Assembly (NCBI GenBank): GCA_902705835.1
Contig: CACSIN010000026.1
Coordinates: 128,154 to 192,153 of the forward strand
DNA: 64,000 bases
Origin: BD1-7 clade bacterium
GTDB taxonomy: Bacteria > Pseudomonadota > Gammaproteobacteria > Pseudomonadales > DT-91
Reading direction: 5' to 3'
The notes below the pieces were generated by a model that had not been told where the DNA came from, did no database searches, and worked only from the letters and a program-made list of their open reading frames with translations. A program made the position numbers and the translations under genes. Of this stretch, positions 1,765 to 20,903 are shown piece after piece. Position 1 is the stretch's first letter, and each line of letters opens with the position of its first letter.

Positions 1765-1773
1765 TCTAATTAT

Positions 1774-3036: not shown

Positions 3037-3063
3037 GCCTAGTTGCAATCGTGGCTAGGGGGC

Positions 3064-5007: not shown

Positions 5008-5810
5008 GCCAAGCCGTCCACGAGTTTTTTGATCGCATACATGCCTGGGTATTGTGCAATGCGCTTTTTCATTATTTGCGTTTTTAGATAGATATACGAT
5101 TCGAGGCGTGAGCAAAGATGATGGTCGATGAGTGACTGGCGGTACTCTTCCAGACTTTTATTGAAATAAATGTCACTGACTCCACCAAGAGCCATCTCAG
5201 CAAGTACGTCATCGAGGAGGTAGAACGTTCGATTGTGGCAGATAGCCCTGTGAATCCATTCACTGTCCATGGCGAAGTGAAAGTCGTCATTATACCCACC
5301 GAGGTTTTCGTAAGCCCGTCGCCGAATAAATGTTGAAGGGTGAAAGAGATGCATCTTGAATTTCATCTTTTTCAGGTTTGGATAGCGAAGATAGGTATGT
5401 TGTTTGGTATCTGACACATACCGAATCGCGCCGCACACAAGATCTGCATCGTTGCGGCGCTGAAATGCGCGTTTTACGGTATCAGCTGTTGTTGGCATCC
5501 AACGGTCATCGCTGTTTAGTATGGCGACGATGTCGTTGCTACTGGCATTTATGCCACGATTAAATGCGTCTGCGATACCACTGTCAAAGCCCGATTCCCA
5601 ATACGCTATATAGTGAGAAAACCGCTGTATTTGTTCAAGGGTGCCGTCTGTAGATCCGCCGTCGATAACAATAATTTCGTCAGTTTCGGTGAGTTGGTGG
5701 AGAATACTGCCGATCGCGTTGGCAAAACCCTGCGCATTATTGAGAACGGGAATGATAATACTGAGGGAGCCGAGCGGGGTAGCTGTGTTGGCTGAGTCTG
5801 AAGAAGCCAT
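5004..5810 (-). CDS. GT2-family glycosyltransferase
   Basis: This 268-residue protein has the GT-A fold opening LSIIIPVLNN (about 16-25), a DGGSTDGT motif (50-57) and NSDDR (99-103), the acidic pair that binds the nucleotide-sugar metal. The aromatic SEWIH motif follows near residue 183. It has no membrane segment and should act at the inner face of the inner membrane. It starts 4 bp after the DUF115-like gene and overlaps the next gene by ATGA, so translation is coupled. Donor and acceptor cannot be told. Confidence 0.9.
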   Translation of the reverse strand: MASSDSANTATPLGSLSIIIPVLNNAQGFANAIGSILHQLTETDEIIVIDGGSTDGTLEQIQRFSHYIAYWESGFDSGIADAFNRGINASSNDIVAILNSDDRWMPTTADTVKRAFQRRNDADLVCGAIRYVSDTKQHTYLRYPNLKKMKFKMHLFHPSTFIRRRAYENLGGYNDDFHFAMDSEWIHRAICHNRTFYLLDDVLAEMALGGVSDIYFNKSLEEYRQSLIDHHLCSRLESYIYLKTQIMKKRIAQYPGMYAIKKLVDGLA

Positions 5811-5814
5811 ACGG

Positions 5815-6576
5815 TTAAGCCGCCAAAAAGTCAGTTAATCCAATACGCGGGAGGCATTCGAGCTTGCCGCCAATACTGGCGTTATAGAGACCTCTGCCAT
5901 TTTCGGAATAAGCTTTCAGTGCCATTAGGTATGAAATGTTACTGTTGTCTAAATCAGGGACCTGCCATGTCTGACCGTCTGAAAAGTAGGCGCTTGAAAA
6001 ATGGGCGCTGTCGTTACCGCTAAACTGCTGCTCTTCGTTAGGTTTACCTTGGGTATTGTTAAAATGATGGTCACACCCGACTAATGCGACATCTTGAAAA
6101 CCTAAATGGAAAGCGAGCTGCATCGCTACAAAGGTAACGGTGTAACCTTCGTAAACACTTAAACTGCAGTCAGTTGAGAAAATCGGATAATCGCTCATTT
6201 GTAAAAAAGTTGTATTTTTTTGTTTGGCGAAACTTCGTGATGCTCGATGACTCAGAAATAACGGTATATCAGTGGCGTTAAAAAACTCGTGGTTTTGGTG
6301 GATAACATGCGGGTTAACAGAAACGATTACACTGGGTCTGAACGTTGTTTGTTCGAACAGTAGATTGATTTTGTTCAAGCCAAGCGTGAAAACACCATCA
6401 AGTGCCGTTAGATCGATCTGATTCAAACTGGGGCCATTACAAAGGATGACGGCTTTCTCGCCGCGATGCTCATCTTTTATGTGTTGTAATACATGGCGCG
6501 ATTGCCAAGACCTCATCGTCATATCCCACATTAACCGCTTGTAGAGAAGGCTTGCTGACTTTCTGTATGGATTCAT
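5815..6576 (-). CDS. DUF115 / MAF-like protein, second copy
   Basis: The protein shares the key motifs of the first gene in the window: CNGPSLNQIDL, ALVGCDHHF and SIGGKLECLPRI. I place the start at the ATG at 6576 (253 residues); an ATG at 6618 is possible but would overlap the SDR gene by 25 bp, and neither has a clear ribosome site. DUF115 proteins are best known as flagellin Maf transferases and as sugar transferases in capsule or LPS loci. No flagellar gene is near, so a surface-glycan role is more likely. Its position beside a CMP-sugar synthetase-like gene suggests it could use that product. Confidence 0.72.
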   Translation of the reverse strand: MNPYRKSASLLYKRLMWDMTMRSWQSRHVLQHIKDEHRGEKAVILCNGPSLNQIDLTALDGVFTLGLNKINLLFEQTTFRPSVIVSVNPHVIHQNHEFFNATDIPLFLSHRASRSFAKQKNTTFLQMSDYPIFSTDCSLSVYEGYTVTFVAMQLAFHLGFQDVALVGCDHHFNNTQGKPNEEQQFSGNDSAHFSSAYFSDGQTWQVPDLDNSNISYLMALKAYSENGRGLYNASIGGKLECLPRIGLTDFLAA

Positions 6577-6593
6577 AAATTCGCCATCTAACC

Positions 6594-7340
6594 TTAAGCC
6601 GGGTCGTGCAGGCGACAACCAATGCCACCGTCTAAAGCGATCGATTCACCATTGAGAAACGGTGTTTTTGATTCTGCGAGGAAGTAGCAAAACTCGGCGA
6701 CTTCTTCCGGGTTGCCGATGGTACCGGTTGGATGGTGTTTCTTGAGAGATTCCAGCATTTCAAGATCGCCCCCAAACCCTTCGAGAAGCATTTCTGTTTT
6801 AATTGCCGCAGGTTCAATGCAGGTGACGCGCACGCGACCGGCCAAATCAACCGCCATGGCGCGTGTTAACCCGGCAAGGGCTGATTTTGACGTTGCATAA
6901 CTCACAAACGCGGGTTTGGTTTGGCGTGCATGAATACTGCCGATATTAATGACAACGCCTTTCGCGCCGGCGAGTTGGGGCAGCAGAGTACGTGTCAAAC
7001 ACAGCGGAACAACGACGTTACAATCAAAGCTGAGGTAGAAGTTTTCGAGATCGATTTGATCAAGCGGTTCGAGTATTTGCACCGCGGCGTTATTGATTAA
7101 ACATGTCAACGCTACGTCATGGTGATCTAGGTGCTGAGTTATTGTCTCGTAAAATCGCTGTAGTTCGAGAGGGTCTTTAGTTAACTTCACAAGGTCGTAT
7201 TGAATTTTCAGGTTTGCGTGATTGTTGGTGATTTCGTTTTTATCGATTCCGATGACAAAATATTCCTGTTGACTAAAGGTGCTCACAATCTCTGAGCCGA
7301 TACAACCTGCAGCACCTGTTACTACGACGGCTTTTTTCAT
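6594..7340 (-). CDS. Short-chain dehydrogenase/reductase, PtmA-like
   Basis: A classical SDR of 248 residues with the cofactor motif TGAAGCIG (8-15), NNAA (83-86), and catalytic Ser135, Tyr148 and Lys152 (SYATSK). The C-terminal SIALDGG is also typical. The ATG at 7340 overlaps the dehydrogenase stop by ATGA. SDRs beside a CMP-sugar synthetase recall ptmA/ptmB of the Campylobacter flagellin glycan locus, where PtmA acts in making the precursor of legionaminic acid. I infer oxidation or reduction of a sugar or its precursor; the substrate is not visible. Confidence 0.87.
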   Translation of the reverse strand: MKKAVVVTGAAGCIGSEIVSTFSQQEYFVIGIDKNEITNNHANLKIQYDLVKLTKDPLELQRFYETITQHLDHHDVALTCLINNAAVQILEPLDQIDLENFYLSFDCNVVVPLCLTRTLLPQLAGAKGVVINIGSIHARQTKPAFVSYATSKSALAGLTRAMAVDLAGRVRVTCIEPAAIKTEMLLEGFGGDLEMLESLKKHHPTGTIGNPEEVAEFCYFLAESKTPFLNGESIALDGGIGCRLHDPA

Positions 7341-8278
7341 GCGTGCTGAATCTCCAAGAGCTTTTGCAGCTTTGTGATGGCTTCAAGGTTTGTGGCTTGC
7401 ACTGCATCGACGGTATTCGAAGCATTATGCGAGCCCAATATGCAGTAGTTGTGGCTAATCAACTGCGAGCTGACTGGTAGAGGCTCTGTTTCGAATACAT
7501 CTAGAGCGGCACTGTGTATCTTGCCGGTTTTAAGGCCCTCGAGGAGGGCGCTTTCATCGATGAGAGGCCCGCGTGCGACATTCACGATTCGTACGCCGTT
7601 TTTGCACTGTGCAATTTCTGAATGAGAAAGCATGTGGCGGGTTTTATCGGTTAGCGCGCATGTGAAAATTAAGAAATCCAGCGATTCGATGTTTTCAGGC
7701 CAATTGCGCTGTTTTACACAATCCAGATTTGACGGTATTTCTTTAATAAAGGGGTCGTAGGTATAAACATCCATATCCGATGCAAGCAGGCGTTTTGCGG
7801 TGTTTTTGCCAATATCACCAAAGCCGACGACACCGACTTTTTTACCGGCAATGGAAATCCCTGTAGGTTTTACCCAGTTGCCTGAACGCACGTTTCTATC
7901 GATGAAGAAGGTGTTTCGTGCTAAACCAATGATATATCCGACGGCGATATCGGCGACTTCTTTACCAAACATATTGGGTGTGTAATCGAATTCGATGCCG
8001 AGCTCTTCGCAGGCCGCTCGATCGACGTTATCTGTACCAACGCCCCATTTAACGCAGGCTTTGAGTTGTGTGTTTTTGCCATAAGTGAGCACGTCGCGTG
8101 TTGCAGGATCATCGCCAATAATCCACCCACCGACATCCGTCAAATAACGTTTCAATTCTGTTTCGCTGAGTGTTTGAGACACTTCGGGGGTAACAGCCTC
8201 AAACCCCATTTTTTCAAAAATTGGGAGAAAGTGTTCTTTCTGCTGCAACATGGGAGGGCACGTCACTAGTACCTTCAT
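7337..8278 (-). CDS. D-isomer-specific 2-hydroxyacid dehydrogenase
   Basis: With the ATG at 8278 (313 residues), which overlaps the upstream stop by ATGA, the protein has the expected length. It shows the NAD site VGFGDIG, and the catalytic set Arg (NVARGPL, residue 236), Glu (DVFETEP) and His284 (GSHNAS). Relatives include phosphoglycerate and glyoxylate/hydroxypyruvate reductases. In a glycan operon it may supply or consume a 2-hydroxy/2-oxo acid used as a sugar precursor or substituent such as lactate or glycerate. That is inference from place only. A longer start at 8329 would overlap the previous gene by 55 bp. Confidence 0.9.
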   Translation of the reverse strand: MKVLVTCPPMLQQKEHFLPIFEKMGFEAVTPEVSQTLSETELKRYLTDVGGWIIGDDPATRDVLTYGKNTQLKACVKWGVGTDNVDRAACEELGIEFDYTPNMFGKEVADIAVGYIIGLARNTFFIDRNVRSGNWVKPTGISIAGKKVGVVGFGDIGKNTAKRLLASDMDVYTYDPFIKEIPSNLDCVKQRNWPENIESLDFLIFTCALTDKTRHMLSHSEIAQCKNGVRIVNVARGPLIDESALLEGLKTGKIHSAALDVFETEPLPVSSQLISHNYCILGSHNASNTVDAVQATNLEAITKLQKLLEIQHA

Positions 8279-8955
8279 ACATTTACCTCTAAGGAATCTG
8301 CTTGCGCGATGATTGCTGCCAGATCCCAATCTTGTGGTTCATCAATATCGACAGACTCGATAGCGCTTGTCGCGTGCATCATTGGATTTTTGCCGATTCG
8401 CGCCTTTGTTGTTTGAAATGCCTGTTTGGTAAAAATGTACAAACAGGAGTTTTCTTCGAACAAGGGAGCGAGATCTTGTGTGGGTATCAGATTATTAAGA
8501 TCGTGGTTAACGGGCGTTGCTTGAGCGTCGTAGAGCCGCGTTTGCAGTTTATTGACGGTAAACAAGCTATCTTTATCGGGTGAAGATTTCAGCGTATTGA
8601 GGGCAGTGTTGATGGTACTAACAGACAAAAATGGATTGGTAGTATGAGTCATGATATAGAGATCGGCATCGGTATGCGCGAGGTCGTTTTCGATAACACG
8701 ATTCATGCTTACCTCGTCGCCACATATTGATTTTTCGCGTTGGCGAACGATGAGTTTGTCAGATTTCGGCAAGCCTTCTCGACGGAGTTCTTCAATGGCG
8801 TCGGTGTTAATCACGACTTCGTCTATTTCAGGCATTGAGAGGAGTTTGTCGAGCATCCAGCGAAACAGAGGTTTGTTGCCGAGTTTTCGAAAATTCTTGC
8901 CTTTAACTCGTGTGCTGTTCGCCTTCAATGGCATTAACGCTATAACTTTTGTCAT
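8275..8955 (-). CDS. CMP-sugar synthetase-like cytidylyltransferase (NeuA/PtmB family)
   Basis: This 226-residue protein resembles acylneuraminate cytidylyltransferases. The N-terminal loop LMPLKANSTRVKGKN corresponds to the family's nucleotide-binding PARGGSKGxxxKN loop, and the end holds DIDEPQDW, like the family's D-x-P-x-D metal site. Family members join CMP to sialic, legionaminic or KDO-type acids. The start at 8955 has a good ribosome site (AGGAAG) and lies 53 bp inside the upstream GT2, an unusually long overlap. The Gly-rich loop is altered (KANSTR for the usual RGGSKG), so the substrate may be unusual. No nonulosonate synthase is in view. Confidence 0.85.
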   Translation of the reverse strand: MTKVIALMPLKANSTRVKGKNFRKLGNKPLFRWMLDKLLSMPEIDEVVINTDAIEELRREGLPKSDKLIVRQREKSICGDEVSMNRVIENDLAHTDADLYIMTHTTNPFLSVSTINTALNTLKSSPDKDSLFTVNKLQTRLYDAQATPVNHDLNNLIPTQDLAPLFEENSCLYIFTKQAFQTTKARIGKNPMMHATSAIESVDIDEPQDWDLAAIIAQADSLEVNV

Positions 8956-9865
8956 TACTTCCTGCGCTCTTATTGTTAATCGGACGGCTTGGATAAAAGT
9001 ATTTCTTTTTGCTCTCTTTTGAGATTGCGCGTATCAAGTGGTTACCTCTATACGAGCCCCAAAATTGATGGAGTCTAAACGCAAATATACCGCTGGTTTC
9101 GCGAAGCAGTTTCCGTTGCTGAGTTGCTGCGATTAGGTCACTCGTAACGGATGATAGAAAGCACCAGACAAAGTCACGGTGGGTCATATGGATTTCTGGA
9201 TGAATGTGGCGAAGAGCGATTGCCTCACGCTCATAACGGCGGCGGATTTGTTTCCAGCCTTCATTGTGAATGTGGTAAACCGGCGCATCTGCGCAGTAGC
9301 CAATTTTTTCGCCCGCTTCAAACAGGCGTTTGGCCGTGTGCATATCTTCAAGGCCGGTTAGATCTTCGTCGAAATGCGCACCTTCCCAGTTTGATCGGCG
9401 AATAGCGGCGTTGGCGTTGTTACAGAAAAACCCTGCTTGTGGTATCGCTGATTCGTTGGGGAAGTACTTTAAGAACACGCGGGATTCACTGAATTTTGTC
9501 GTGTCTCTACCGATTTGTTTTCCGTAGCTATAGCAGACATCGCTGTTTTTTATCGGTGTACACAGGGTGTTAATCCATTGGTCGTTCACAGGGACACAGT
9601 GACCACTGATAAAAACGAGAATATCGCCACGCGCTTGTTCACAGCCTATGTTCAGGCTGCGACCGAAGGAAAACTCATCTTTGGTGATATAAACCAGTTC
9701 TGCGCCATTTTCTCTCGCGATGTGGAGAGTTTGGTCTGTGGAGCCAGAGTCGACGACCACCGTTTCAATATCGAAGACGGACTTGTCTTGCTGATGGATT
9801 TTGTCGAATAACTCTCCAAGGTATTTTTCTTCATTCAATGTTCGGATTATGATGCTGACAAGCAT
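8903..9865 (-). CDS. GT2-family glycosyltransferase
   Basis: A 320-residue GT-A protein: LVSIIIRTLNEEKYL at the start, VVVDSGSTDQT (36-46), and a GLEDMHTAKR motif near residue 170, which fits the ED acceptor-site motif of many GT2 enzymes. Where most GT2 proteins have a DxD, this one reads SGHC (87-90), as in a subgroup of GT2 proteins with LSAHCxP-type motifs. The ATG at 9865 lies 19 bp inside the metallo-hydrolase gene, and its own 3' end overlaps the cytidylyltransferase by 53 bp. It belongs to the coupled glycan operon; the sugar is unknown. Confidence 0.87.
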   Translation of the reverse strand: MLVSIIIRTLNEEKYLGELFDKIHQQDKSVFDIETVVVDSGSTDQTLHIARENGAELVYITKDEFSFGRSLNIGCEQARGDILVFISGHCVPVNDQWINTLCTPIKNSDVCYSYGKQIGRDTTKFSESRVFLKYFPNESAIPQAGFFCNNANAAIRRSNWEGAHFDEDLTGLEDMHTAKRLFEAGEKIGYCADAPVYHIHNEGWKQIRRRYEREAIALRHIHPEIHMTHRDFVWCFLSSVTSDLIAATQQRKLLRETSGIFAFRLHQFWGSYRGNHLIRAISKESKKKYFYPSRPINNKSAGSNDKSYSVNAIEGEQHTS

Positions 9866-10665
9866 GTTTGGCTTCCTGCCTTTTGCGTATCAAGGTGAAT
9901 AGATTGTCCCGCTTCGATTACCGACAGTTCGAAAGACGGAGAGATCATGCGATAGAGAAGCGAAATTTCTTCGGGGTATACGCAGTTCGCGTCAAACATA
10001 TCCCAATGTGTTGGTATTAGGCGATCAATGCCAACGGCGTCGCATAGATAAAATGCTTCGCGTACGCTCATATTTCCCAGTATGCCGGAGGCATCACGCA
10101 TGAAGTTGCATTCATTGACCGGGATGAGCCCGATATCAATGGGGGCATGTGCTTTCAGATGATCGATGAGCGCCTGACAGAGACTGGTGTCACCCGCATG
10201 ATAGATTTTTCTACCCGCGACATTGAATAGGTAGCCGACCGTTGTCCAGAGCCCTTCAGCATTTTCACGGATGATTGGGTGTGCTGACGGCAAGATCGAC
10301 ACGTCAATATCGCCGAATAGGAAAAAGTTACGGGTAAGCTTTTTTAAATTCAAATTTTGATTTTGTGGAAATTTCTCTAGCCTGTTAATCACACTCGGTG
10401 GGCCGAATATCGGGACGTTCTCATTGAGGCTTGCGATTAAATGCAAGGTTTCAGGGTCGCAATGATCGAGGTGATTATGAGTTATAAAGACTGCATCGAC
10501 GGCGGTTGCCGTACTACTAATCGGAGGGATTGGAACTCGTCTGACTAAATCCTCTGATTCGGTTTCTGCGACGGCATTGCTTAGGTAGGGATCAACCATG
10601 ACGCGGCACTCAGGTGTGGTTATCACACAGCCGACTTGACCGAGAAATTGAATCTCTATAGGCAT
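9847..10665 (-). CDS. Metallo-beta-lactamase-fold hydrolase, UlaG-like
   Basis: The first gene of the eight-gene operon. This 272-residue protein has the zinc motif THNHLDHCD (62-70) and a second metal ligand in YHAGDTSLC, matching the UlaG / NAPE-PLD-like branch of the fold (GQVGCVI start and MVDPYLS near 23-29). Known relatives hydrolyse lactones or phosphodiesters. A member in a glycan operon is uncommon. It could open a sugar lactone or release a lipid or phosphate group from an intermediate. The start has AGGA 7 bp upstream and is clear. Confidence 0.85.
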   Translation of the reverse strand: MPIEIQFLGQVGCVITTPECRVMVDPYLSNAVAETESEDLVRRVPIPPISSTATAVDAVFITHNHLDHCDPETLHLIASLNENVPIFGPPSVINRLEKFPQNQNLNLKKLTRNFFLFGDIDVSILPSAHPIIRENAEGLWTTVGYLFNVAGRKIYHAGDTSLCQALIDHLKAHAPIDIGLIPVNECNFMRDASGILGNMSVREAFYLCDAVGIDRLIPTHWDMFDANCVYPEEISLLYRMISPSFELSVIEAGQSIHLDTQKAGSQTCLSAS

Positions 10666-10847
10666 GGTTACGTCCTATGCATAATCGTTGTTATTTTTCT
10701 ATCCGATTTATTTGCGGGTACGTTTTCTTCGCGTTTTCGAACCTTTTTGAAGGTAGTGCATAATCAAGAATGTGCTAGTTTTAAACCGCATGGCGCCAAC
10801 GCGAGCGTTCAATTCTGTGAGTGAGTTTTATTTTTCTAGGGATGTCG
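10666..10847. promoter_or_regulatory. Divergent control region between the glycan operon and the GT4 gene
   Basis: About 180 bp separate the minus-strand operon head from the plus-strand GT4. The region is AT-rich and should hold both promoters. I found no convincing -35/-10 pair or operator. Confidence 0.4.
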
Positions 10848-11954
10848 ATGGATCGGAAGATGTTACGTATTGGTGTCGATGCTCGGCCGCTTGCCGGGCC
10901 TGCCACAGGAATCTCACGTTACGTATCAGAACTTTTAAAAAGGTTGGTTCAGGCTAGCTCAAATGAGGTTTGTTGGTATCTCTATTCGGACGCGCCAATC
11001 GACTTTGATTGTGGCAAAGCATCCATTGTTATCCGTCATTTTTCGTCTAATCGATCTGGACGATTTTCGAATTTTTTCAGATATCAATATCATTTTCCAC
11101 GTTGGATTAGAAAAGACTCTCTTGATGTTTTTTGGGGTACTCGTCACCATCTGCCGTTACTTTTCCCATCTTCTGTAAGAAGTGTTTTGACGATTCATGA
11201 TCTCGTTTGGCGGCAGCTGCCAGCTTCGATGACTCGATTGGGGTTGTTGCAAGAAAGCATGTGTTTTCCCTCGTCAGTGAATAAAGCCGACAGTCTCGTC
11301 TGCGTGTCGGAGAATACAGCCAACGATCTTTTATCACTGAAGCCAGATACCGCAACTCCTCATGTCGTTTGTCCGGGGGTATCGACCAGCTTTTTTAGTG
11401 TGCAATCCCCAGCGAATGATCAACGGTATTTTTTGTGTACGGCGACACTTGAACCTAGAAAAAACTTGCTGCGGCTTTTGGAGGCATTCGCTTCTACGCG
11501 GCGCAGGGGGTGTGATTGGCGATTAGTTATTGTTGGTATGGAAGGGTGGGGCGATACTCATTATTCTCAAGCTACATCACGTTTAAACATTGAGTCATTT
11601 GTCGATTTTATGGGATTCGTTGATGATGCTGAATTATGTCGGTTATATGCTGGCGCATCAGCATTTGTGTTTCCGTCGCTCTACGAAGGGTTTGGTTTGC
11701 CCATCATCGAGGCAATGGCGGCAGGGGTGCCCGTGATTGCTTCGAATGTGGGATCAATGCCAGAGGTAGTTGGCCGCGCAGGGTACCTCGTTAACCCTTA
11801 TGACGTGAGTGACATTGCCGATGCCATGCTTAAGCTTGCCCGCGATGAAGCTCTACAACGTGAGTTGAAAAGTGCCGGACTCGTGCGAGCTAAGCAATTT
11901 TCATGGGATCATAGCGCGGCTGCGCTTCAGCGAATTTTGTTGACTGGCGAGTAA
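10848..11954 (+). CDS. GT4-family glycosyltransferase
   Basis: A group-1 glycosyltransferase of 368 residues from the ATG at 10848, chosen because AGGG sits 6 bp upstream; a GTG at 10821 and ATGs at 10842 and 10860 are alternatives. It opens with [19 protein letters not shown], has TLEPRKNL in mid-protein, and the C-terminal E-x7-E site [20 protein letters not shown]. The opening motif and overall form resemble mannosyl/rhamnosyl transferases of LPS and capsule. It is divergent from the glycan operon and convergent with the ABC exporter, and probably builds the same polymer. Confidence 0.92.
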
Positions 11955-11981
11955 TGCATTTGAATGGTTCAGGTAAGTAGT

Positions 11982-12731
11982 TCAGGCAAACTCTTTAGAT
12001 GCTAGCGCTCCAGTTGCTTTTGCCTGACTTTCATAGCGTTCTAAAATCTCTTTAGTTGCACCCGAATCCACAATTATTCCGTGCTCTATCCAAATCACCT
12101 TATTGCAAAACTTTTCAATGTCCTTAACGTTGTGAGAGACCATTATGACGGTAGTATCAGATGCAAACGTCTTTTCCATCGCGCTGCGACATTTTGCCCT
12201 GAATTGAGTATCGCCGACTGAAAGTACTTCGTCGATCATCAAGATTTCGGGTTTGAGGTAGAGGGAAACAGCAAAGCCGAGTCGGGCTCGCATTCCGGAT
12301 GAGTAAGTATGAATAGGTTGGTCAATAAAAGTTTCCAGTTCCGAAAAACGAATGATGTCGGGCATCAAGGCATCCATCTGCTGCTTGCACAACCCCATTA
12401 GCATGCCATTCATGGTTGCATTAGTGCGACCACTGAGGTTGGTGTCAAACCCTAGCTGTAGCGAGAGTAGTGCGGTCTTTTGCGTTTTAACCTGGATGTT
12501 GCCTGCGTCGGGTTTGAGTATGCCGGCGATAAGGCGAAGCAATGTACTTTTGCCCGCACCGTTCCTGCCGATGATTGCTACAGAATCCCCCTTTTGAATA
12601 TCAAAACTTATATTATCCAGGGCAGTAAAGATTGTTTTGGGACGAAAAAATGCCAGCCCGCTTTTGTAGCTGTAGCGAAGGTTTTGCGCTTTAACAATAG
12701 GGGGGCGAAGAGCTCTGTTTTCAGCATTCAT
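11982..12731 (-). CDS. Polysaccharide ABC exporter, ATP-binding subunit (KpsT/Wzt type)
   Basis: This 249-residue ATPase has Walker A GRNGAGKST (55-63), the signature YSSGM (143-147) followed by RARLGFA, Walker B ILMIDE (163-168) with the SVGD D-loop, and the switch His in MVSHN. It lacks the extra C-terminal carbohydrate-binding domain of some Wzt proteins, so it is the short KpsT/TagH form. It powers export of a finished lipid-linked glycan across the inner membrane. Its ATG overlaps the permease stop by ATGA, and the two form one transporter. Confidence 0.93.
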   Translation of the reverse strand: MNAENRALRPPIVKAQNLRYSYKSGLAFFRPKTIFTALDNISFDIQKGDSVAIIGRNGAGKSTLLRLIAGILKPDAGNIQVKTQKTALLSLQLGFDTNLSGRTNATMNGMLMGLCKQQMDALMPDIIRFSELETFIDQPIHTYSSGMRARLGFAVSLYLKPEILMIDEVLSVGDTQFRAKCRSAMEKTFASDTTVIMVSHNVKDIEKFCNKVIWIEHGIIVDSGATKEILERYESQAKATGALASKEFA

Positions 12732-13543
12732 CGTTGCAGGAGTACCCGAGGTATTTGAGCGTCATAACGTCGCATTAACAGTGTAGTCAGCGCAATTGCA
12801 GATATCGATAAAGCGGCAGTGATCATCAGGCTGAATAGGTCTGGTGCACTGTTAGTGAGAAAGATCTTCCTGAAGCTGTCAATGACGACCCACATCGGAT
12901 TTATGCCAAACCATTGCTGATAGTGCGGAGAAAGTGTTTCCACAGCATAGAATATGCCAGATAGAAACATCATGAGCCTTAACAGGTTAGGCAGAAGAAC
13001 CTGAAAATCCGGAACATATGTTGTGATAATTGCAGCGATATAGGAGCACGCGCTGATCAGCAATAGTTGTACTAGAAGTACGATAGGTAGGTAAAAATAT
13101 GCAACGCTGACCCCTTCAGTGGAAAATTGCATCAGCAACAGAAGCAATACGAAAGTAACCAGAAACTTGATCGTATTAATGAGAATGGTAACGCTCGGCA
13201 GGATAAGCTTCGGAAATCTGACCTGACAAACAAGATCTTTGTTTGCGTTAATCGACGCTGCAGATTGACTGACGGCATTTGCAAACCATTGCCAGGTGAC
13301 TAATCCGATGAGCAGAAATGCAACGTAGTTTTCTGTTCCGCGATTGAGAAGAAGCTTAAATACGACATAGTAGGTCGCCATGGATAGTAGCGGTTCAATG
13401 ACCCACCACATGAAGCTCAGATAAGTTTTAGTCGATTCTGATTTTAATGTGGCAATGGCCTTGAAGACGATAAGCTGGCGGTGTTCAGGTTGGAATAAAA
13501 GCAAGGCTGGATTCTCGATACCGATTCTTATTATGACGCCCAA
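12728..13543 (-). CDS. Polysaccharide ABC exporter, permease (KpsM/Wzm type)
   Basis: An ABC-2 permease of about 271 residues with six hydrophobic segments. It carries the family opening, in which a short cytosolic helix (about 25-45) leads into FMWWVIEPLLSM, and a late region with FLSGIFYAVE and NPMWVVIDSFR. The track start at 13543 is a TTG (TTGGGC), with no ATG nearby in frame; the true start may be this TTG or a CTG 6 bp upstream. It pairs with the ATPase at 12731. No outer-membrane exporter (Wza/KpsD) is in the window. Confidence 0.9.
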   Translation of the reverse strand: MGVIIRIGIENPALLLFQPEHRQLIVFKAIATLKSESTKTYLSFMWWVIEPLLSMATYYVVFKLLLNRGTENYVAFLLIGLVTWQWFANAVSQSAASINANKDLVCQVRFPKLILPSVTILINTIKFLVTFVLLLLLMQFSTEGVSVAYFYLPIVLLVQLLLISACSYIAAIITTYVPDFQVLLPNLLRLMMFLSGIFYAVETLSPHYQQWFGINPMWVVIDSFRKIFLTNSAPDLFSLMITAALSISAIALTTLLMRRYDAQIPRVLLQR

Positions 13544-13757
13544 ATGCAGAGGGAGGGCGCTGTTCCATTCTATCCGTCAATCTGGATTTCTAATCCCGTG
13601 TTTATGCAGTGATACTTGTGGGCTCTATGTGCCAATTGAGCCAACATATTCTGTCACAATCGGCCGCGCTGCATGCTTTGAAGCTAGCATATGTCGTGCT
13701 TTCTTCCAGTACAGTTCATCGAGTTTTGTTGAGTATCGATATTTAGGAGAGGTTAGC
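13544..13757. other. Intergenic stretch upstream of the exporter and the micro-ORF
   Basis: Together with the micro-ORF that follows, 340 bp separate the exporter and the orphan gene at 13884. No convincing promoter pair was seen. An ORF crossing it in frame with the micro-ORF lacks coding character and overlaps the permease antisense. Confidence 0.35.
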
Positions 13758-13823
13758 ATGGTTGATATGAATCAAGTTGATGCGGGTTTTCCTTCATGTA
13801 ATGAAACGGTTGATATGTATTGA
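13758..13823 (+). CDS. Possible 21-residue micro-peptide
   Basis: An ATG at 13758 has a strong ribosome site, AGGAGAGG, 6 bp upstream, and the frame runs 21 codons to a TGA. The peptide is acidic and holds one Cys; its C-terminus is ETVDMY. It lies 60 bp before an orphan 143-residue gene on the same strand. It could be a leader peptide, a small functional peptide or a chance ORF. It does not match PqqA or another precursor I know. The ribosome site is the only positive evidence. Confidence 0.35.
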   Translation: MVDMNQVDAGFPSCNETVDMY

Positions 13824-13883
13824 GGCTCTATAAGGTATCCGCGCTTGATTGGCAGGTGTGATTGCAGTGCAGGGAGCCTATGT

Positions 13884-14315
13884 ATGCGTATGAATTTAGG
13901 TTTAGAGGAAGTGCTAGGGATTGCGTCCGGATTCAGTTTTAGTGGGCTAATTGTTCAGTTGGTATATGTGACTGACGAAAACGGGAATAAACCGGCCGCG
14001 ATACTCAATGATTGGTCTTTGGGTTACGTTAGTGGTTTTGTTGACGCATCGATTCAGGCAGCGTCCATCCCAGACAATAGCTTCGTGGCTCAACGCTTGC
14101 TCTTGCGTGCTTTCAGTGTGTTATTTCCCAGTGTAAATAGTCAGTCGTTGTATCGGCGGCTTGTGCGATTGCAGGATGCGGGTAGTCGCGAGATCTATGC
14201 AGGAATGACGCGAGGAGGCGCAGATGTCAGTGCTTGGCTGACGCGCTCCATTGTACCTATGTCTTGGGTGGATTATATGTGCGCGCCCGATGTTTGTGAG
14301 TCGGCAATTGCTTAA
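13884..14315 (+). CDS. Orphan hypothetical protein, 143 residues
   Basis: I do not recognise this protein. The ATG at 13884 has AGGGAG 7 bp upstream and is preferred over the ATG-less extension to 13845. The product is soluble and mixed helical: a central ILNDWSLGYVSGFVDASIQ segment, a long Leu/Arg-rich stretch (FVAQRLLLRAF ... YRRLVRLQD) and a C-terminal tail with two Cys residues. The gene is convergent with the 77-residue gene, with 14 bp between stops, and lies near the degenerate decarboxylase-like gene. A shared function is only a guess. Confidence 0.6.
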   Translation: MRMNLGLEEVLGIASGFSFSGLIVQLVYVTDENGNKPAAILNDWSLGYVSGFVDASIQAASIPDNSFVAQRLLLRAFSVLFPSVNSQSLYRRLVRLQDAGSREIYAGMTRGGADVSAWLTRSIVPMSWVDYMCAPDVCESAIA

Positions 14316-14329
14316 AAAGTTGGCGACGT

Positions 14330-14563
14330 TTATTTCGCGTTTGAATCTACTGCAAGTGTCATGTAATTCTGAACTTCGTGGTCAATATGCGGCATGATGG
14401 CTTCGCCATGGCACTGAAATGCGGCTATGCACTGCACCAGCGAATGGTATTCGTGGCTCGCTTGGCCAATGTCGTGCGTGTTGTAACCTGGCATTTTGTA
14501 GCCGAGAGTTTCGTTTGCTGCTGATGCGGCTTCTGTCATTTGCTCTAAGTCTGTGGCTTCCAT
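14330..14563 (-). CDS. Small His/Cys-containing hypothetical protein, 77 residues
   Basis: The start has a strong ribosome site (GAGGAAAG, 3-4 bp from the ATG), so a real gene is likely. The product is acidic, helical and soluble. Its middle has a run of possible metal ligands: HDIGQASHEYH, then C-x5-C-H, then HIDH. I know no family. It is divergent from the PSD-like gene across 149 bp. It could be a metal-binding or regulatory small protein. Confidence 0.6.
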   Translation of the reverse strand: MEATDLEQMTEAASAANETLGYKMPGYNTHDIGQASHEYHSLVQCIAAFQCHGEAIMPHIDHEVQNYMTLAVDSNAK

Positions 14564-14665
14564 CGTCTTTCCTCTATATCCCAGTCATATAGTATTCTCC
14601 TAAGTTTAGCTCACATCCATCGCTTTGATCCGGAAACAAATACTTCATTTCTATCGAAGCCGCGC

Positions 14666-14678
14666 GTCAAAGTTTGAC
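14666..14678. promoter_or_regulatory. 13-bp palindrome in the divergent promoter region
   Basis: GTCAAA-G-TTTGAC is a perfect palindrome midway between the 77-residue gene and the PSD-like gene, 35 bp before the latter's ATG. It could be a regulator site controlling both. It also contains a TTGAC, so overlap with a -35 box is possible. Confidence 0.35.
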
Positions 14679-14712
14679 TATAGTGAGGCAGTAATACCAA
14701 GGAGTCAGGTTA

Positions 14713-16128
14713 ATGAATAAGGATATAAATGTTCTGACTGTCGAGTTGGCTGGCCAATCGTTGATGTCTGATGTGCCATTCAATATGCCATTCGATACGT
14801 CTCTTGATGCCACTCACAATATACATATTGATAGGCTCTCTCAACGACTCACTGCTGAGGTTTCCCAACGTTGGGCTGCATCCGTTGAGCTCACTACAGG
14901 TTCTGTATCGGTGGCCGCAGATTGGTATGGTCGCTGGTTGTCGCGCAGCAAAGCTGCGTTTATCCATGCCGATAAACCTCTACATCGAAGTGTTAGGGCA
15001 TTGCAATTTCTACTAGAAAAAGATCTTCACCTTGCCGAGCTGTTAGACAATATGCTGCGGCAAGGGAGTGCTTTGCAGCGTTCAGAGATGGAAGTCGAAC
15101 ACGCGGTTGTCGAAACCACAGACGAATGGCTACTTTGCTTGCATCACGCCGTAACCTCTGCGCCGAAGTTTGAATTGGAACGCGGTTTTGGCCTTGATCC
15201 ATTGTACGGCGTATTGGTGTTCATGCTGGCTACCGATGCAGCCGACGAATTTTTTAGTCATGAAGCAGTCAATCGCTGTTTTCTTCAGATGATGAATACC
15301 TGGTATGCATTTCTGAGTTCGCCTGCCTCGTTATCTACGCTGAATACCGGGCCTAACGGGTGGTTATGCCATGAATCCTGGGTGAGGAATCGGCTCGATC
15401 AATATGTAACAAGCAGAATGCTTACCGATGACCCCGTGCATTGGGGATTTTCGACGTATTTGTCCTTCCAGAATCGGCGTGTCATTCAAATCTGTCGCCC
15501 GCTGGATGGATATAGCGACACCCCTGAAGTGAATAGCATCGTCGTTTCTCCTTGTGATGGTCGTTTGTCGGAGGTTCTGCATTCTGTTAACAGAAAAACT
15601 CATGTGATGCTGCGTGATCAAAGCGCTTTATTGTCGACATTGGTGCCTGATGATGCTGAGTTTCACTCGGAGGGCGCTGATTTTTTCCGAATTAATCTTG
15701 GGGTGTTTGATCTGCATCGCTGGTTTGCGCCAGTTTCTGGAACGATCGTGAGTGTCGAAAAGATACCCGCTAACCGATGTGTTGCGCCGCTCTTGCAAAT
15801 AATGGCGTTAGATCCGGCTAAATCCAGCGTAAATACGATGGTGAGAATTCTAATAGAAACTAAGCATGCTGCAGGTAATAAGAAAGTCCTCGTGTTGGCT
15901 CTCGGCAGCGCATCATCAAGCTCGGTTTGTTCGTATGCAAAGGCAGGTCAGTGTGTCGAAAAGGGCGATGAAATAGGGTGGTTTAATGATGCCGGTGGAG
16001 TGATATGCCTTATATTTGAAGCGAATCTCATCGAGCGCTTTATTCACTCTTCTCCGCCTCAACAACTTTCTGTTTGCCAACAAACGCACCTTCGGGCGAA
16101 GGCCCAGATCGCTGTTGTCGATATTTGA
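14713..16128 (+). CDS. Phosphatidylserine decarboxylase-family protein, probable pseudoenzyme
   Basis: A 471-residue protein of the PSD superfamily with the extra N-terminal domain seen in PsiD-like decarboxylases (hallmark NTWYAFLSSPASL at 195-207, then GW). The C-terminal half follows PSD: SPCDG (279-283) keeps the catalytic Asp, and DLHRWFAP (333-340) keeps the first His but has Phe338 where E. coli PSD has His147. The self-cleaving LGST motif reads DAGG (426-429), so the Ser that becomes the pyruvoyl group is gone. It cannot mature in the known way. The ATG has AAGGAG 8 bp upstream. The gene is intact, so a non-catalytic role, such as lipid binding, is plausible. Confidence 0.82.
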   Translation: MNKDINVLTVELAGQSLMSDVPFNMPFDTSLDATHNIHIDRLSQRLTAEVSQRWAASVELTTGSVSVAADWYGRWLSRSKAAFIHADKPLHRSVRALQFLLEKDLHLAELLDNMLRQGSALQRSEMEVEHAVVETTDEWLLCLHHAVTSAPKFELERGFGLDPLYGVLVFMLATDAADEFFSHEAVNRCFLQMMNTWYAFLSSPASLSTLNTGPNGWLCHESWVRNRLDQYVTSRMLTDDPVHWGFSTYLSFQNRRVIQICRPLDGYSDTPEVNSIVVSPCDGRLSEVLHSVNRKTHVMLRDQSALLSTLVPDDAEFHSEGADFFRINLGVFDLHRWFAPVSGTIVSVEKIPANRCVAPLLQIMALDPAKSSVNTMVRILIETKHAAGNKKVLVLALGSASSSSVCSYAKAGQCVEKGDEIGWFNDAGGVICLIFEANLIERFIHSSPPQQLSVCQQTHLRAKAQIAVVDI

Positions 16129-16179
16129 TAGTCTGGTTTGCTCTAGTCGACTTTGCTAGCGGGGCCCAGGTGCAGCCCG

Positions 16180-17367
16180 TTAGCCGGATATTGCTCCTTC
16201 TTCGGTAAGTTTTCGAATCGCTTCTTCGGAATACCCTAAAGCTGACAACGTCGCGTGATTCTGCGTGCCTAGTGCGGTGCCCGCAATTAACGACGCTTGG
16301 CGGGTGTTGCCAAAGCGTATAGGACACGCGATCTGTTTGACAGTGTCGCCACTAGAAAGCTGAGCATCACAAATCATTTGTCGTTCAATAAAATGCGGAT
16401 GCGATGTTGCTTCTGCGAGATTCAGCACGGGAGAAACACAGGCGTCGGCTTGGCTGAACTTATCCTGCCAGTCGGCAAATGTTCGTTTTTTGATTTCGTT
16501 GGTGATATCGCTTTTTAACGTGTGCTGGGTATCGGTTGAGTAGTCAAAAAATCGTTCTAACCACTCAGGTTTGTCTATAACGCTACAGAACGCTTTACAG
16601 AATTTGGGTTCGAGACCACCGACTGCAAGCCAGCGGCCATCGGATGTTTCGTAGTAATCATAGAAAATCCCGCCATTCAGCTGTTCTGTTCCTAACCCTG
16701 GAACTTGTTCGTCCGCGAGATGACTCGCAGCGAAAATAGTATTCATTGAAAGTACCGCGTCCGTCATGCTGATATCGACATGTTGCCCGGTGCCTGACGT
16801 CTGGCGTTGGATAACAGCTGCCAAAATACCCATTACTGCATGATGGCTACCACCGGCGACATCGGCAATCTGTGTGCCGTTGAGTACTGGGCCTGTATTT
16901 TCTCGGCCACTGTAGCTGGCCAAACCGCCGAGAGATAAGTAGTTAATATCATGCCCGCCGGCTTGCGATAGCGGGCCTGATTGTCCGAAGCCCGTGATTG
17001 AACAATAGATAAGTTCAGGGTGTGCCTTGCTTAGCGTTGAATAATCCAGCCCCAGCCTAGCCATTACACCCGGGCGATATTGCTCAATAATAATGTCGTA
17101 CTCATCGAGTAATTTGATCACGATCGATGCGGCTTCAGGATGTTTCAAATTTAACGCCATCGATTTTTTATTACGGTTTATCGAGGCTTGCGCGGCGCTA
17201 ACTCCCTCTTCGATATAGGGGGGCATTAGTCTGAGGAAATCCGGCCGATCGGGGGCTTCGATACGTAAAACCTCAGCACCCATATCGGCTAAAAGCATAG
17301 TTGCATATGGGCCGGGAAGAAGCGGGGTGAAATCAAGGATTTTTAGTCCCTTTAATGGTGCAGCCAT
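16180..17367 (-). CDS. CaiB/BaiF family protein, alpha-methylacyl-CoA racemase-like
   Basis: This 395-residue protein starts GLKILDFTPLLPGPYATMLLADMGAEV, the family III CoA-transferase opening. The GGHDINYLSLGG region (138-149) matches the racemase (AMACR) active-site Asp segment, and QHVDISMTDAVL follows. AMACR flips the 2-methyl centre of branched acyl-CoAs so that beta-oxidation can go on. The next genes upstream on this strand are an acyl-CoA dehydrogenase, a FadJ-like enzyme and a thiolase, which fits. A 244-bp gap separates it from them, so it may have its own promoter. A CoA transferase with another acid is the alternative. Confidence 0.87.
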   Translation of the reverse strand: MAAPLKGLKILDFTPLLPGPYATMLLADMGAEVLRIEAPDRPDFLRLMPPYIEEGVSAAQASINRNKKSMALNLKHPEAASIVIKLLDEYDIIIEQYRPGVMARLGLDYSTLSKAHPELIYCSITGFGQSGPLSQAGGHDINYLSLGGLASYSGRENTGPVLNGTQIADVAGGSHHAVMGILAAVIQRQTSGTGQHVDISMTDAVLSMNTIFAASHLADEQVPGLGTEQLNGGIFYDYYETSDGRWLAVGGLEPKFCKAFCSVIDKPEWLERFFDYSTDTQHTLKSDITNEIKKRTFADWQDKFSQADACVSPVLNLAEATSHPHFIERQMICDAQLSSGDTVKQIACPIRFGNTRQASLIAGTALGTQNHATLSALGYSEEAIRKLTEEGAISG

Positions 17368-17611
17368 GGTAATTCCATATGTGATGTTATGCGTTTCAGT
17401 GTCTAAAAATCATATCTGAATTTTAATGATAACGGAGGTGTTGGTGAAAGGAATTACATCGATAGCGCTTAAGTTAAAGCGATTTAACGCTGGCACTGCG
17501 GTAATAGCGCCGGTTTGCTATCGGTTATGTGGGACGGCGCACTGGTAGTGGAAGTGAGCATGATCGCGAGAGTGTCGCCGTGTGTTATTTACGTGCTGGC
17601 GCTTAATCGGA

Positions 17612-18754
17612 TTAGCGAAGCACTGCGCGGCTGATAATGAGTTTCATCACTTCATTGGTGCCCGCATAGATTTTTTGCACCCGTGCGTCGGCGTACGCTC
17701 GGGCAACCGGGTATTCCCACATATAGCCCCAACCACCGTGAAGTTGGAGGCATTCGTCGATCACCTGACACTGGAGATCTGTCGACATCAATTTCGATTT
17801 CGCGGCCGTTGGTACGTCTAACTGCCCGTCGATGTGGAGTTCCAAACATTTGTCAATAAACACTCGGGCAACGGTCAAATCGGTGTCCATCTCGGCGATT
17901 TTGAACTGCGTATTTTGCATCGCAGCAATGGGCTTTCCGAAGGCTTTTCGGTCTTTCACATATTCGATAGTTTGGCGCAAAATTGACTCTGCCGAAGCGA
18001 TAGCGATGATTGCTACCGAAAGACGTTCTTGCGGTAATTCCTGCATCAAATAAATAAAACCCTGGCCCTCTTCGCCGAGCAGGTTTTCTTTCGGAACACG
18101 AACGTTGTCAAAAAACAATTCGGATGTGTCCTGTGCTTTCATGCCGATTTTTTCCAAGTTATTGCCTTTAGAAAAACCGAGAGAACCTGCTTCAACTAGC
18201 AATAAACTGATCCCTTTGGCGCCTTCTGCTGCATCGGTTTTGGCCACGACAATAACAAGATCTGCGTGTTGGCCGTTTGTGATGAAAGTCTTAGAACCAT
18301 TGAGAACGTAGTGGTCCCCATCGAGTATTGCTGTTGTTTTTATGCCTTGAAGGTCCGAGCCGGCACCAGGTTCCGTCATCGCAATTGCGGTAACAACTTC
18401 GCCACTGATACACTTCGGCAGGTACTTTTTCTTTTGCTCCTCATCGCCGTAGTTTAGTAGGTAGGGCACAGCGATATCGGAGTGCAGCCCCCAGCCAATA
18501 CCTGTTAGCCCCATGCTGGATATTTCTTCGTCAATGATCGCGTTGTAGCGGAAATCAACACCGACTCCGCCATAGGCTTCCGGTACGGTAGGGCATAGAA
18601 ACCCCTGTTCGCCGGCTTTGTTCCAGAGGCTTCTATCGACTTGGCCGTCTTTTTCCCATTGGGCGTGGTACGGTACGGCTTCGGCTTCAAGGAATTTTCG
18701 AACGGAATCACGGAACATTTCGAGGTCAGAATCGTAAATAGTTCGCTGGATCAT
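17612..18754 (-). CDS. Acyl-CoA dehydrogenase, LCAD/IVD-type active site
   Basis: A 380-residue FAD flavoprotein of the usual length and order, with AMTEPGAGSDLQGI and FITNGQ for flavin contacts, and DRKAFGKP and LQLHGGWGY later. At the site where MCAD-type enzymes carry the catalytic Glu (IYEGT) it reads IYAGT (about 364-368). The Glu of LPQERL is in the place used by long-chain and isovaleryl-CoA dehydrogenases. It should introduce the 2,3 double bond into a long or branched acyl-CoA. It begins 1 bp after the FadJ-like stop, so the two are cotranscribed. Confidence 0.92.
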   Translation of the reverse strand: MIQRTIYDSDLEMFRDSVRKFLEAEAVPYHAQWEKDGQVDRSLWNKAGEQGFLCPTVPEAYGGVGVDFRYNAIIDEEISSMGLTGIGWGLHSDIAVPYLLNYGDEEQKKKYLPKCISGEVVTAIAMTEPGAGSDLQGIKTTAILDGDHYVLNGSKTFITNGQHADLVIVVAKTDAAEGAKGISLLLVEAGSLGFSKGNNLEKIGMKAQDTSELFFDNVRVPKENLLGEEGQGFIYLMQELPQERLSVAIIAIASAESILRQTIEYVKDRKAFGKPIAAMQNTQFKIAEMDTDLTVARVFIDKCLELHIDGQLDVPTAAKSKLMSTDLQCQVIDECLQLHGGWGYMWEYPVARAYADARVQKIYAGTNEVMKLIISRAVLR

Positions 18755-18755
18755 C

Positions 18756-20903
18756 TTAGGGCTCCTTACTGAAGATATGAGTTGCGCTGCCAGAAATTAG
18801 CGAATCAGGCAGGGAGAACCTATCGCCATAACGTTCTGCCAGGTAATTGGCTCGTTGGTTAAATGCTTCAATGCCATATTGGCGGATAAACTGAAGTGCG
18901 CCGCCTGTCCAAGGCGGATATCCAATCCCGAAGATCGAACCAATGTTGGCGTCGCGCGTTGATGTCAGTACTCCCTCGTCATAACAATGAGCGGTTTCTA
19001 AGGCCATGATAAATAGGAGGCGATCTTTGATATCGTCAAGCGGTGTTGGTGTTGTTTCTGCCTTGGTGATTGACGTTAGACCTGGCCAAAGGTATTTTTT
19101 ATCTGATGCTGGGTAGTTGTAGAAACCCGCACCAGCGGCCTTTCCTGCACGCGATTTAGACAGCATTGCGTCGATAACAAGATCACCAGGGTGTGGGTTA
19201 TAGGTATTGCCCTCAGCCTCGAGATCGCTGATTTCCTGTTGTTTGATCTTGTTGAGAAGTGTTAGCGATACTTCATCAACAACCGCGAGTGGCCCCACCG
19301 GGAATCCCGCTAAGAATGCTGCGTTCTCAATGGTTGCTGCTGGGATGCCTTCGCCCAGCATGGCTGCACCTTCGAGGCAAAACATCCCGAAAACCCGCGA
19401 AGTAAAAAAGCCACGACTGTCGTTTACAACGATGGGTGTTTTGCCAATTTGCAGCACAAAATCGTAAGCAATCGCGAGCGTTTCATCGCTAGTGTTTTGA
19501 CCACAAATGATTTCAACCAGCGGCATTTTGTCTGCCGGTGAAAAGAAATGTAAACCGATAAATTTTTCCGGATTCAACGATGCCTGACTGAGCCCGGATA
19601 TCGGTAATGTCGATGTATTAGATGAAAAAATACCATGATCGCTCAGGTGGGGCTCTGCTTCTTGGGTGACTTGAGCTTTGAGCTGTCTGTCTTCGAATAC
19701 AGCTTCGATGATCAAGTCGCATTCTGCGAGATCACCAGCGTTATCGGTTGGGTGTATCGCGGAGAGCACAGTTTTTGCTTGTTCAGCTGTTAGGCGCCCG
19801 TTATCGATACGCTTTTGAAGCCGTTTCTCGCTATAGGCTTTGCCGTTTTTTGCGCTCTCGAGTGTCACGTCTTTCAAAACGACATCGATACCTATATCGG
19901 CACAGGCATACGCGATACCTGAACCCATCATACCTGCGCCAAGAATACCGATTTTTTGACGCGGCGATGATGCGGGAAGGTCAGGCCTTGATGCACCTGC
20001 TTTAATTTCATTGAGCTGGTACCAGAAAGTGTGAATCATGTTTTTCGCAACCTGATGGGTTGTCAGATTGACGAAGTAACGGGATTCGATGCGTAGCGCT
20101 GTATCAAAATCGACCTGAGCACCTTCGACCATGGCGCACAGAATATACTCGGGTGCAGGAAGGGTCCCTTTGGTTTGATTGCGCATCATCGCTGGTGCAA
20201 TGGGCAATAATTGCGCCATGGCGGGGTGATCCGGCTTTCCACCTGGAATACGGTATCCTTTTTCATCCCAAGGTTGGTGGCTTTCAGGGTTGTCTTTAAT
20301 CCAGCGAACGGCGTTTTTAAAGAGTGTTTCTTCGTCTGCCACGATATCGTGGATGATGCCCAATGTTTGCCCCTTGGCTGGGTCGAATTTTTTACCTTCC
20401 GTAAGGTAAGGCATGGCCTGCTGAAGACCGAGCAGGCGCACCATGCGAACGATACCGCCGCCGCCGGGAAGAAGCCCGAGGGTGACTTCGGGTAATCCCA
20501 GCGTCACATTATCATCGAGAGAAATCCGATGGTGGCACGATAGTGCGAGTTCTAGACCACCACCCAGTGCTGCGCCGTTGATACATGCAACAACGGGTTT
20601 TCCTCCTGTCTCAAGGCGGCGCATCGCATGTTTGAAAGACTCGACGGAATCGTAAAACATACCGGCGCTGTTGGTATCAACCTGATAGAGCATGTCGAGG
20701 TCACCACCTGCCATAAAGGTGGCTTTTGCCGACCGAATGATGACGCCGATGTGATCGGTCTGCTCGACTTCCTGGCAAACGTCGATGAGATCAGAGATAA
20801 AATCGGTGTTGAGTAAGTTTGCACTGCCTCTGGGGTTATCCAGAATCAGGTGAATAATATTGTCCGCGTCTTTTTCAATATGGATGGATCGATTGGTCAT
20901 CAT
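18756..20903 (-). CDS. fadJ: FadJ-like multifunctional enoyl-CoA hydratase / 3-hydroxyacyl-CoA dehydrogenase
   Basis: This 715-residue fusion has an N-terminal crotonase domain (about 1-200: oxyanion motif INGAALGGGLELALSCHH, then GLPEVTLGLLPGGGG) and a 3-hydroxyacyl-CoA dehydrogenase domain from about residue 315 (GILGAGMMGSGIAYA, SSNTSTLPIS, GLHFFSPADKM). It performs steps two and three of beta-oxidation. A GGAGG site lies 5 bp before the ATG at 20903. It sits between thiolase and acyl-CoA dehydrogenase in one operon. It resembles both FadB and FadJ; the lack of an adjacent fadA of FadBA type favours the FadJ name, but the symbol is tentative. Confidence 0.92.
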   Translation of the reverse strand: MMTNRSIHIEKDADNIIHLILDNPRGSANLLNTDFISDLIDVCQEVEQTDHIGVIIRSAKATFMAGGDLDMLYQVDTNSAGMFYDSVESFKHAMRRLETGGKPVVACINGAALGGGLELALSCHHRISLDDNVTLGLPEVTLGLLPGGGGIVRMVRLLGLQQAMPYLTEGKKFDPAKGQTLGIIHDIVADEETLFKNAVRWIKDNPESHQPWDEKGYRIPGGKPDHPAMAQLLPIAPAMMRNQTKGTLPAPEYILCAMVEGAQVDFDTALRIESRYFVNLTTHQVAKNMIHTFWYQLNEIKAGASRPDLPASSPRQKIGILGAGMMGSGIAYACADIGIDVVLKDVTLESAKNGKAYSEKRLQKRIDNGRLTAEQAKTVLSAIHPTDNAGDLAECDLIIEAVFEDRQLKAQVTQEAEPHLSDHGIFSSNTSTLPISGLSQASLNPEKFIGLHFFSPADKMPLVEIICGQNTSDETLAIAYDFVLQIGKTPIVVNDSRGFFTSRVFGMFCLEGAAMLGEGIPAATIENAAFLAGFPVGPLAVVDEVSLTLLNKIKQQEISDLEAEGNTYNPHPGDLVIDAMLSKSRAGKAAGAGFYNYPASDKKYLWPGLTSITKAETTPTPLDDIKDRLLFIMALETAHCYDEGVLTSTRDANIGSIFGIGYPPWTGGALQFIRQYGIEAFNQRANYLAERYGDRFSLPDSLISGSATHIFSKEP

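What the first reader, a model, noticed from the sequence alone, without database searches (positions are those of the whole stretch)
13758..16128. Island of orphan genes around the PSD pseudoenzyme
A 21-codon ORF with AGGAGAGG, an orphan 143-residue protein, a 77-residue His/Cys protein and the PSD-like protein lie together between a glycan locus and a lipid-degradation locus. None has a known function except by the degenerate PSD fold. Such a compact set of small genes beside a lost-function lipid enzyme could be an undescribed small system.
Basis: inference. Interest (0 to 1): 0.55.

Follow-up and report, generated by a model that had tools for sequence, protein, structure and literature searches.

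The report
Dead decarboxylase beside two orphan genes
A bacterium keeps a protein that looks like an amino-acid decarboxylase but has lost the residue needed to make its cofactor, next to two small genes seen only in its closest relative; nothing shows that these genes work together as one system.

Summary
The stretch holds three probable genes, not four. The 21-codon ORF is not maintained as described: in the sister genome (BD1-7 clade isolate SB11_3) its ATG is TTG, AGGAGAGG is altered and a base is missing just upstream; its few changes show no constraint. The 143-residue gene is real and tightly constrained (dN/dS 0.026). The 77-residue gene is probably real (5 of 5 changes at third codon positions). 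The 471-residue protein is a divergent but kept pseudoenzyme (dN/dS 0.29). It has the PSDC/PsiD make-up (PF12588+PF02666), and its solved relatives are L-tryptophan decarboxylases, so "lost lipid enzyme" is probably wrong. The self-cleaving Ser is Gly (NDAGG) in 2 of 2 copies here; 27 of 27 readable homologues keep Gly-Ser. The small proteins were found only in this genome and its sister, which are collinear, so "travelling together" is untestable. The genes run +, -, +, so not one operon. The proposed small system has no positive support. Best reading: a stand-alone PsiD-like pseudoenzyme, perhaps ligand-binding, beside two lineage-specific orphans.

The parts
13758..13823 (+). 21-codon ORF (MVDMNQVDAGFPSCNETVDMY); rejected as a maintained gene
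   Evidence: In the sister genome the start is TTG, AGGAGAGG is altered and one base is missing just upstream; 1 synonymous and 4 non-synonymous changes, dN/dS about 1.0.
13884..14315 (+). 143-aa orphan protein (P0001), real gene, function unknown; GGGAG ends 7 bases before the ATG
   Evidence: 21 synonymous and 2 non-synonymous changes, dN/dS 0.026, P=2e-11; no family in Pfam, NCBIfam or PADLOC, one weak PHROG match at E=0.07.
14330..14563 (-). 77-aa His/Cys protein (P0002), probable gene, convergent with the 143-aa gene and divergent from the PSD-like gene
   Evidence: 5 of 5 substitutions at third codon positions, dN/dS 0.18 (P=0.07); start codon and GAGGA kept in the sister; all 6 His and 2 Cys kept.
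14713..16128 (+). 471-aa PsiD-like (PSDC) pseudoenzyme (P0003); D282, D333 and H335 kept, the Ser column is G429, motif FNDAGGV
   Evidence: PF12588+PF02666; Ser lost in 2 of 2 copies here and kept in 27 of 27 readable homologues; dN/dS 0.29, P=1e-4.

Best explanation
The 471-aa protein descends from the PSDC/PsiD-like branch of the phosphatidylserine-decarboxylase superfamily, whose solved members are L-tryptophan decarboxylases that cut themselves to make a cofactor. In the ancestor of two BD1-7-clade genomes it lost the self-cleaving serine (now Gly429) and other family motifs, so it should stay one uncut chain and cannot decarboxylate by the pyruvoyl route (inferred from sequence). It is still under purifying selection, so it does something else. 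Most likely it is a stand-alone ligand-binding or regulatory protein that kept the old pocket (inferred). No live PF12588 paralogue that it could activate was found in the genome. The 143-aa gene and the 77-aa gene are separate lineage-specific genes on alternating strands; the 21-codon ORF is chance.
For: PF12588+PF02666. The three solved chains matched at E up to 10 are L-tryptophan decarboxylases or a PsiD-like protein (best E=3.3e-11). Gly-Ser kept in 20 of 20 other homologues and in 7 of 7 further PSD-sized homologues readable, against 0 of 2 copies here. Two of the nine annotated plasmid neighbourhoods opened have the family member directly behind a basic amino acid/polyamine antiporter gene, in line with amino-acid decarboxylation. 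The genome has a separate PSD with LGST and a single PF12588 match. dN/dS 0.29 with P=1e-4. The pair has the longest branch in the tree, 7.5 changes per column.
Against: dN/dS rests on one pair of close genomes, so slow decay cannot be fully excluded; 0.29 was the highest of the ORFs tested apart from the 21-codon ORF. The protein keeps SPxDG as in canonical PSDs, where 17 of the 20 homologues have CE[AST] instead, and its branch is very long, so its exact place in the family is unsure. The other seven annotated plasmid neighbourhoods show no such antiporter. Uncut state and ligand binding are inferred only. The protein was not folded here, and models of the two small proteins were too poor to use.
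Confidence: 0.62

Rival explanations
1. A decaying gene: the PSD-like protein is on its way to becoming a pseudogene and has no function.
For: Highest dN/dS (0.29) of the genes compared apart from the 21-codon ORF, indels between the two copies, longest branch in the tree.
Against: The frame is intact in both genomes and non-synonymous changes are depleted (20 non-synonymous on 1070 sites against 21 synonymous on 331 sites, P=1e-4); the AGGAG box is kept.
Confidence: 0.15
2. Still an enzyme: it cleaves itself at a moved site, for example LGSASSSS (from residue 397), or uses another chemistry.
For: Asp282, Asp333 and His335 in the columns of the cleavage machinery are kept, and an LGS tripeptide occurs at 397-399.
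Against: LGSASSSS aligns with the family's strand motif (V/I/L)G(M).xVS, not with the cleavage loop; several other family motifs are altered too.
Confidence: 0.06
3. One small system made of the pseudoenzyme and the two small proteins.
For: All three are kept side by side in both genomes in which either small protein was found.
Against: The two genomes are collinear over the 19.4 kb compared, so this is one observation; strands alternate; no small-protein relatives in the held flanks of 21 other loci of the enzyme family.
Confidence: 0.07
4. The 143-aa protein is a divergent UPF0149 (YecA/YgfB-like) protein.
For: Weak match to a UPF0149 protein in G190 (E=0.0018); P0001 ranked above 999 shuffles of itself against a 5-member profile.
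Against: That profile held the protein picked by this very match; without it P0001 scores 3.2 bits, rank 5, below three shuffles and one unrelated ORF; no PF03695 hit at E up to 10.
Confidence: 0.03

Closest known systems
PsiD-type L-tryptophan decarboxylases (8zia, 8x4q; PF12588 N-terminal domain)
   Same: Same two-domain make-up; the active-site His kept.
   Different: Self-cleaving Ser replaced by Gly; motifs such as CPLNA, SW..FFTR and GM.EVSS degraded; SPCDG where the PsiD-like relatives have CE[AS]; 17-28% identity to the homologues aligned.
Canonical phosphatidylserine decarboxylase (E. coli PSD, LGST motif)
   Same: PF02666 domain; SPxDG and DxHR motifs.
   Different: No LGST; extra PF12588 domain; weak match to the family models (44.2 bits against a cut-off of 371 for the best NCBIfam model); the genome has a separate LGST-type PSD.
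Catalytically dead pyruvoyl-enzyme paralogues that activate a live partner (trypanosome AdoMetDC prozyme, recalled)
   Same: A kept pyruvoyl-enzyme fold without the self-cleaving residue.
   Different: No live PF12588 partner found in this genome; no partner known.

Membership tests
PSDC/PsiD-like decarboxylase (by descent) | PF12588 followed by PF02666 above the curated cut-offs | tested here: met
   82.2 bits (cut-off 23.4) and 78.3 bits (cut-off 22)
PSDC/PsiD-like decarboxylase (as an enzyme) | Gly-Ser self-cleavage site that gives the pyruvoyl group | tested here: not met
   AGGV in 2 of 2 copies here; GGS in 20 of 20 other homologues
PSDC/PsiD-like decarboxylase (by descent) | CE[AST] motif in place of SPxDG, seen in 17 of 20 homologues | tested here: not met
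   SPCDG in the window protein, as in canonical PSDs
Canonical phosphatidylserine decarboxylase | LGST motif | tested here: not met
   NDAGG instead; 7 of 7 readable PSD-sized homologues have [LM]GST (an eighth, L012, is masked there)
Canonical phosphatidylserine decarboxylase | Asp and His of the cleavage triad (D90/D142, H144 of E. coli) | tested here: met
   D282, D333 and H335 in the aligned columns (mapping to E. coli numbers inferred; residues from passages of PMC7952604)
Canonical phosphatidylserine decarboxylase | NCBIfam equivalog cut-off | tested here: not met
   Best 44.2 bits against a cut-off of 371
UPF0149 (for the 143-aa protein) | PF03695 match | tested here: not met
   No match; profile without the seed gives 3.2 bits, rank 5 of 1204 rows
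Pyruvoyl prozyme-type activator | A live paralogue to activate in the same genome | tested here: not met
   One PF12588 match in G000; two PF02666 matches, the other being the LGST-type PSD
Pyruvoyl prozyme-type activator | Physical binding to and activation of the partner | not testable with these tools
   Needs protein work

The most novel reading that the evidence does not exclude
A PsiD-like decarboxylase was turned into a sensor or binding protein for an amino acid or amine and works with the highly constrained 143-aa orphan (and perhaps the His/Cys 77-aa protein) as a new lineage-specific module.
Probability: 0.05. Interest if true: 0.5.

Novelty: new variant of a known kind. Interest (0 to 1): 0.22.

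Why it matters
A kept, catalytically dead member of the pyruvoyl PSDC/PsiD branch would be a clean case for asking what a self-cleaving enzyme does after losing its cofactor. The listings of four searches of the held papers showed no title or abstract that describes one (narrow term sets, two of them without any result). The two orphans matter only as lineage-specific genes, the 143-aa one well supported.

Tried and rejected
The 21-codon ORF as a small gene or peptide precursor: rejected by the sister genome. The 124-codon frame 13449-13823 that contains it: not kept, since a 1-base gap falls inside it.

The viral-contig match to the 143-aa protein (L013): a YVTDENGN coincidence in an unrelated-looking frame. 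The five weak phylum-level matches to it (16.6-20.1 bits): the frames printed look unrelated to each other. One is UPF0149, one reads like ribonuclease III (recalled motif), and I did not identify the other three. The UPF0149 link fell when the seed was left out.

AlphaFold models of the 143-aa (pLDDT 36.8) and 77-aa (pLDDT 49.8) proteins are too poor, so no fold search was run. Sequence searches of solved structures gave only weak matches for either (E 0.09 and 1.7 at best). tblastn of the 143-aa protein against plasmids and phages gave no match at E up to 0.1. Scans of viral contigs, which find close relatives only, gave none for the 77-aa or PSD-like protein. The 77-aa protein was not searched in plasmids or phages, and the PSD-like protein not in phages. 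LGSASSSS as a moved cleavage site: rejected by alignment. Searches for a paper on this genome gave nothing specific (listings only).

Full report
What is there. The window lies in a 5.06-Mb genome (G000). Its nearest useful relative, G004, appears to be BD1-7 clade bacterium isolate SB11_3: contig G004:C61 has the length of CACSIO010000061.1, and the 143-aa protein is identical in both. Window and G004 align in one piece over 19.4 kb at 95.3% identity, which allows a test of each reading frame.

The 21-codon ORF. The AGGAGAGG box and the ATG change in the sister: the start is TTG, the box is altered, and one base is missing just upstream. Its changes are 1 synonymous and 4 non-synonymous (dN/dS about 1.0; P=0.68). 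Five changes are few, and the sister frame stays open, so a weak TTG start cannot be excluded. I read it as a chance or unmaintained ORF.

The 143-aa gene (13884-14315, +). 21 synonymous against 2 non-synonymous changes, 20 of 23 at third codon positions, dN/dS 0.026, P=2e-11 against neutrality. It is real and tightly constrained. No Pfam, NCBIfam or PADLOC family matches, and PHROGs gives one weak match (E=0.07). It was found in 2 of 145 relatives, the own genome and G004. In a draw of 398 genomes across the phylum the own genome matched, and five further genomes gave weak hits of 16.6-20.1 bits. The one scan of named genomes confirmed SB11_3 only, from 203 pattern matches; that scan finds close relatives only and may leave out the window's own genome.

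The 77-aa gene (14330-14563, -). Five changes, all at third codon positions, 3 synonymous and 2 non-synonymous, dN/dS 0.18 (P=0.07 by the synonymous/non-synonymous count alone). All six His and both Cys are kept. Found in 2 of 145 relatives, own and G004, and in 1 of 398 across the phylum, the own genome. It lies on the opposite strand between the other two genes, so the three cannot be one simple operon.

The PSD-like gene (14713-16128, +). PF12588 plus PF02666 gives it the PSDC/PsiD make-up. The three solved chains that match are two L-tryptophan decarboxylase sequences and one PsiD-like protein. Relatives are sparse in what was searched: PF12588 in 5 of 293 genomes of the order and 5 of 398 of the phylum, the own genome counted in each, and tblastn matches in 22 plasmid records. 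I opened 11 of those 22; nine carry gene annotation. In two of the nine, Enterobacter and Photobacterium, the gene directly follows a basic amino acid/polyamine antiporter gene; in the other seven it does not. This hints at amino-acid decarboxylation rather than lipid synthesis. PMC12603985 (passages seen) states that PsiD belongs to the PLP-independent PSD family and makes its cofactor by self-cleavage.

Loss of the catalytic serine. In E. coli PSD, self-cleavage occurs at LGST and uses D90/D142, H144 and S254 (PMC7952604, passages seen). In the window protein the Ser column is Gly429 (FNDAGGV); D282, D333 and H335 are kept. 22 loci were examined. One (L054, a short frame) gave no match to the protein. 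Of the other 21, the sister copy lacks the Ser as well, and 20 of 20 others keep GGS (two of the 20 come from one genome, G585). In one search, 7 of 7 further PSD-sized homologues keep [LM]GST, while an eighth, L012, was masked. The genome's own second PF02666 protein has KLGST. Other family motifs are degraded as well (CPLNA, SW..FFTR, GM.EVSS). Against a close tie to PsiD, the protein keeps SPCDG, where 17 of the 20 homologues have CE[AST]. The pair sits on the longest branch of the tree, 7.5 changes per column (placement unsure). The gene is still constrained: dN/dS 0.29, P=1e-4. That is looser than the five flanking genes tested (0.02-0.16).

One system? All three genes occur together in both genomes in which either small protein was found, but those genomes are collinear, so this is one observation. 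In the held flanks (about 0.8 to 8.6 kb a side) of the other 21 loci, neither small protein was found; the best chance hit had E=0.038. GC shows no sharp break, ARAGORN found no tRNA in the window, and promoter-like and terminator-like sites are no more frequent than in shuffles. Three other genomes of the genus and one of the family have only distant relatives of the neighbouring CoA-transferase (32-42% identity), so an empty site could not be defined.

Mechanism. I read the 471-aa protein as an uncut, pyruvoyl-less pseudoenzyme that most likely binds a small ligand in the old pocket. Loss of the Ser and constraint are shown; uncut state, loss of activity and ligand binding are inferred. An activator role like that of the trypanosome prozyme (recalled) lacks a live partner here. 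The two small genes are read as separate lineage-specific genes of unknown function; models of both were too poor to use.

Print. Searches of the held papers for a PSD pseudoenzyme with a pyruvoyl link (no paper), for PsiD with PSD and bacteria (3 papers), for PSD with LGST or amino-acid decarboxylase (15 papers) and for PsiD structures (no paper) listed no title or abstract that describes such a pseudoenzyme; this covers the open-licence library and these terms only.

Noticed in passing
window 1-19451 against G004 (L018): Divergence between the two sister genomes is mosaic in 500-base steps, from 0% (500-1000) to 17.4% (17500-18000), which suggests past recombination.
   Followed up: partly
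13884-14315 against 12728-13543 and 14330-16128: The 143-aa gene has dS 0.23 while its neighbours on both sides have 0.06-0.09.
   Followed up: no
L061 (Enterobacter cancerogenus pUPC1) and L065 (Photobacterium damselae pPDD_KC-Dl-1): Intact PsiD-like decarboxylase genes lie directly after a basic amino acid/polyamine antiporter gene on plasmids, possibly a pyruvoyl decarboxylase-antiporter acid-resistance pair.
   Followed up: partly
L024 and L025: Two same-order genomes carry longer PSDC proteins (496 and 513 aa) with GGSS/GGST and CETTP in place of the SPxDG motif; the L024 protein starts with a lipoprotein-like leader (read by eye).
   Followed up: no
window 30492-36323, -: A 1943-codon ORF, not examined.
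   Followed up: no
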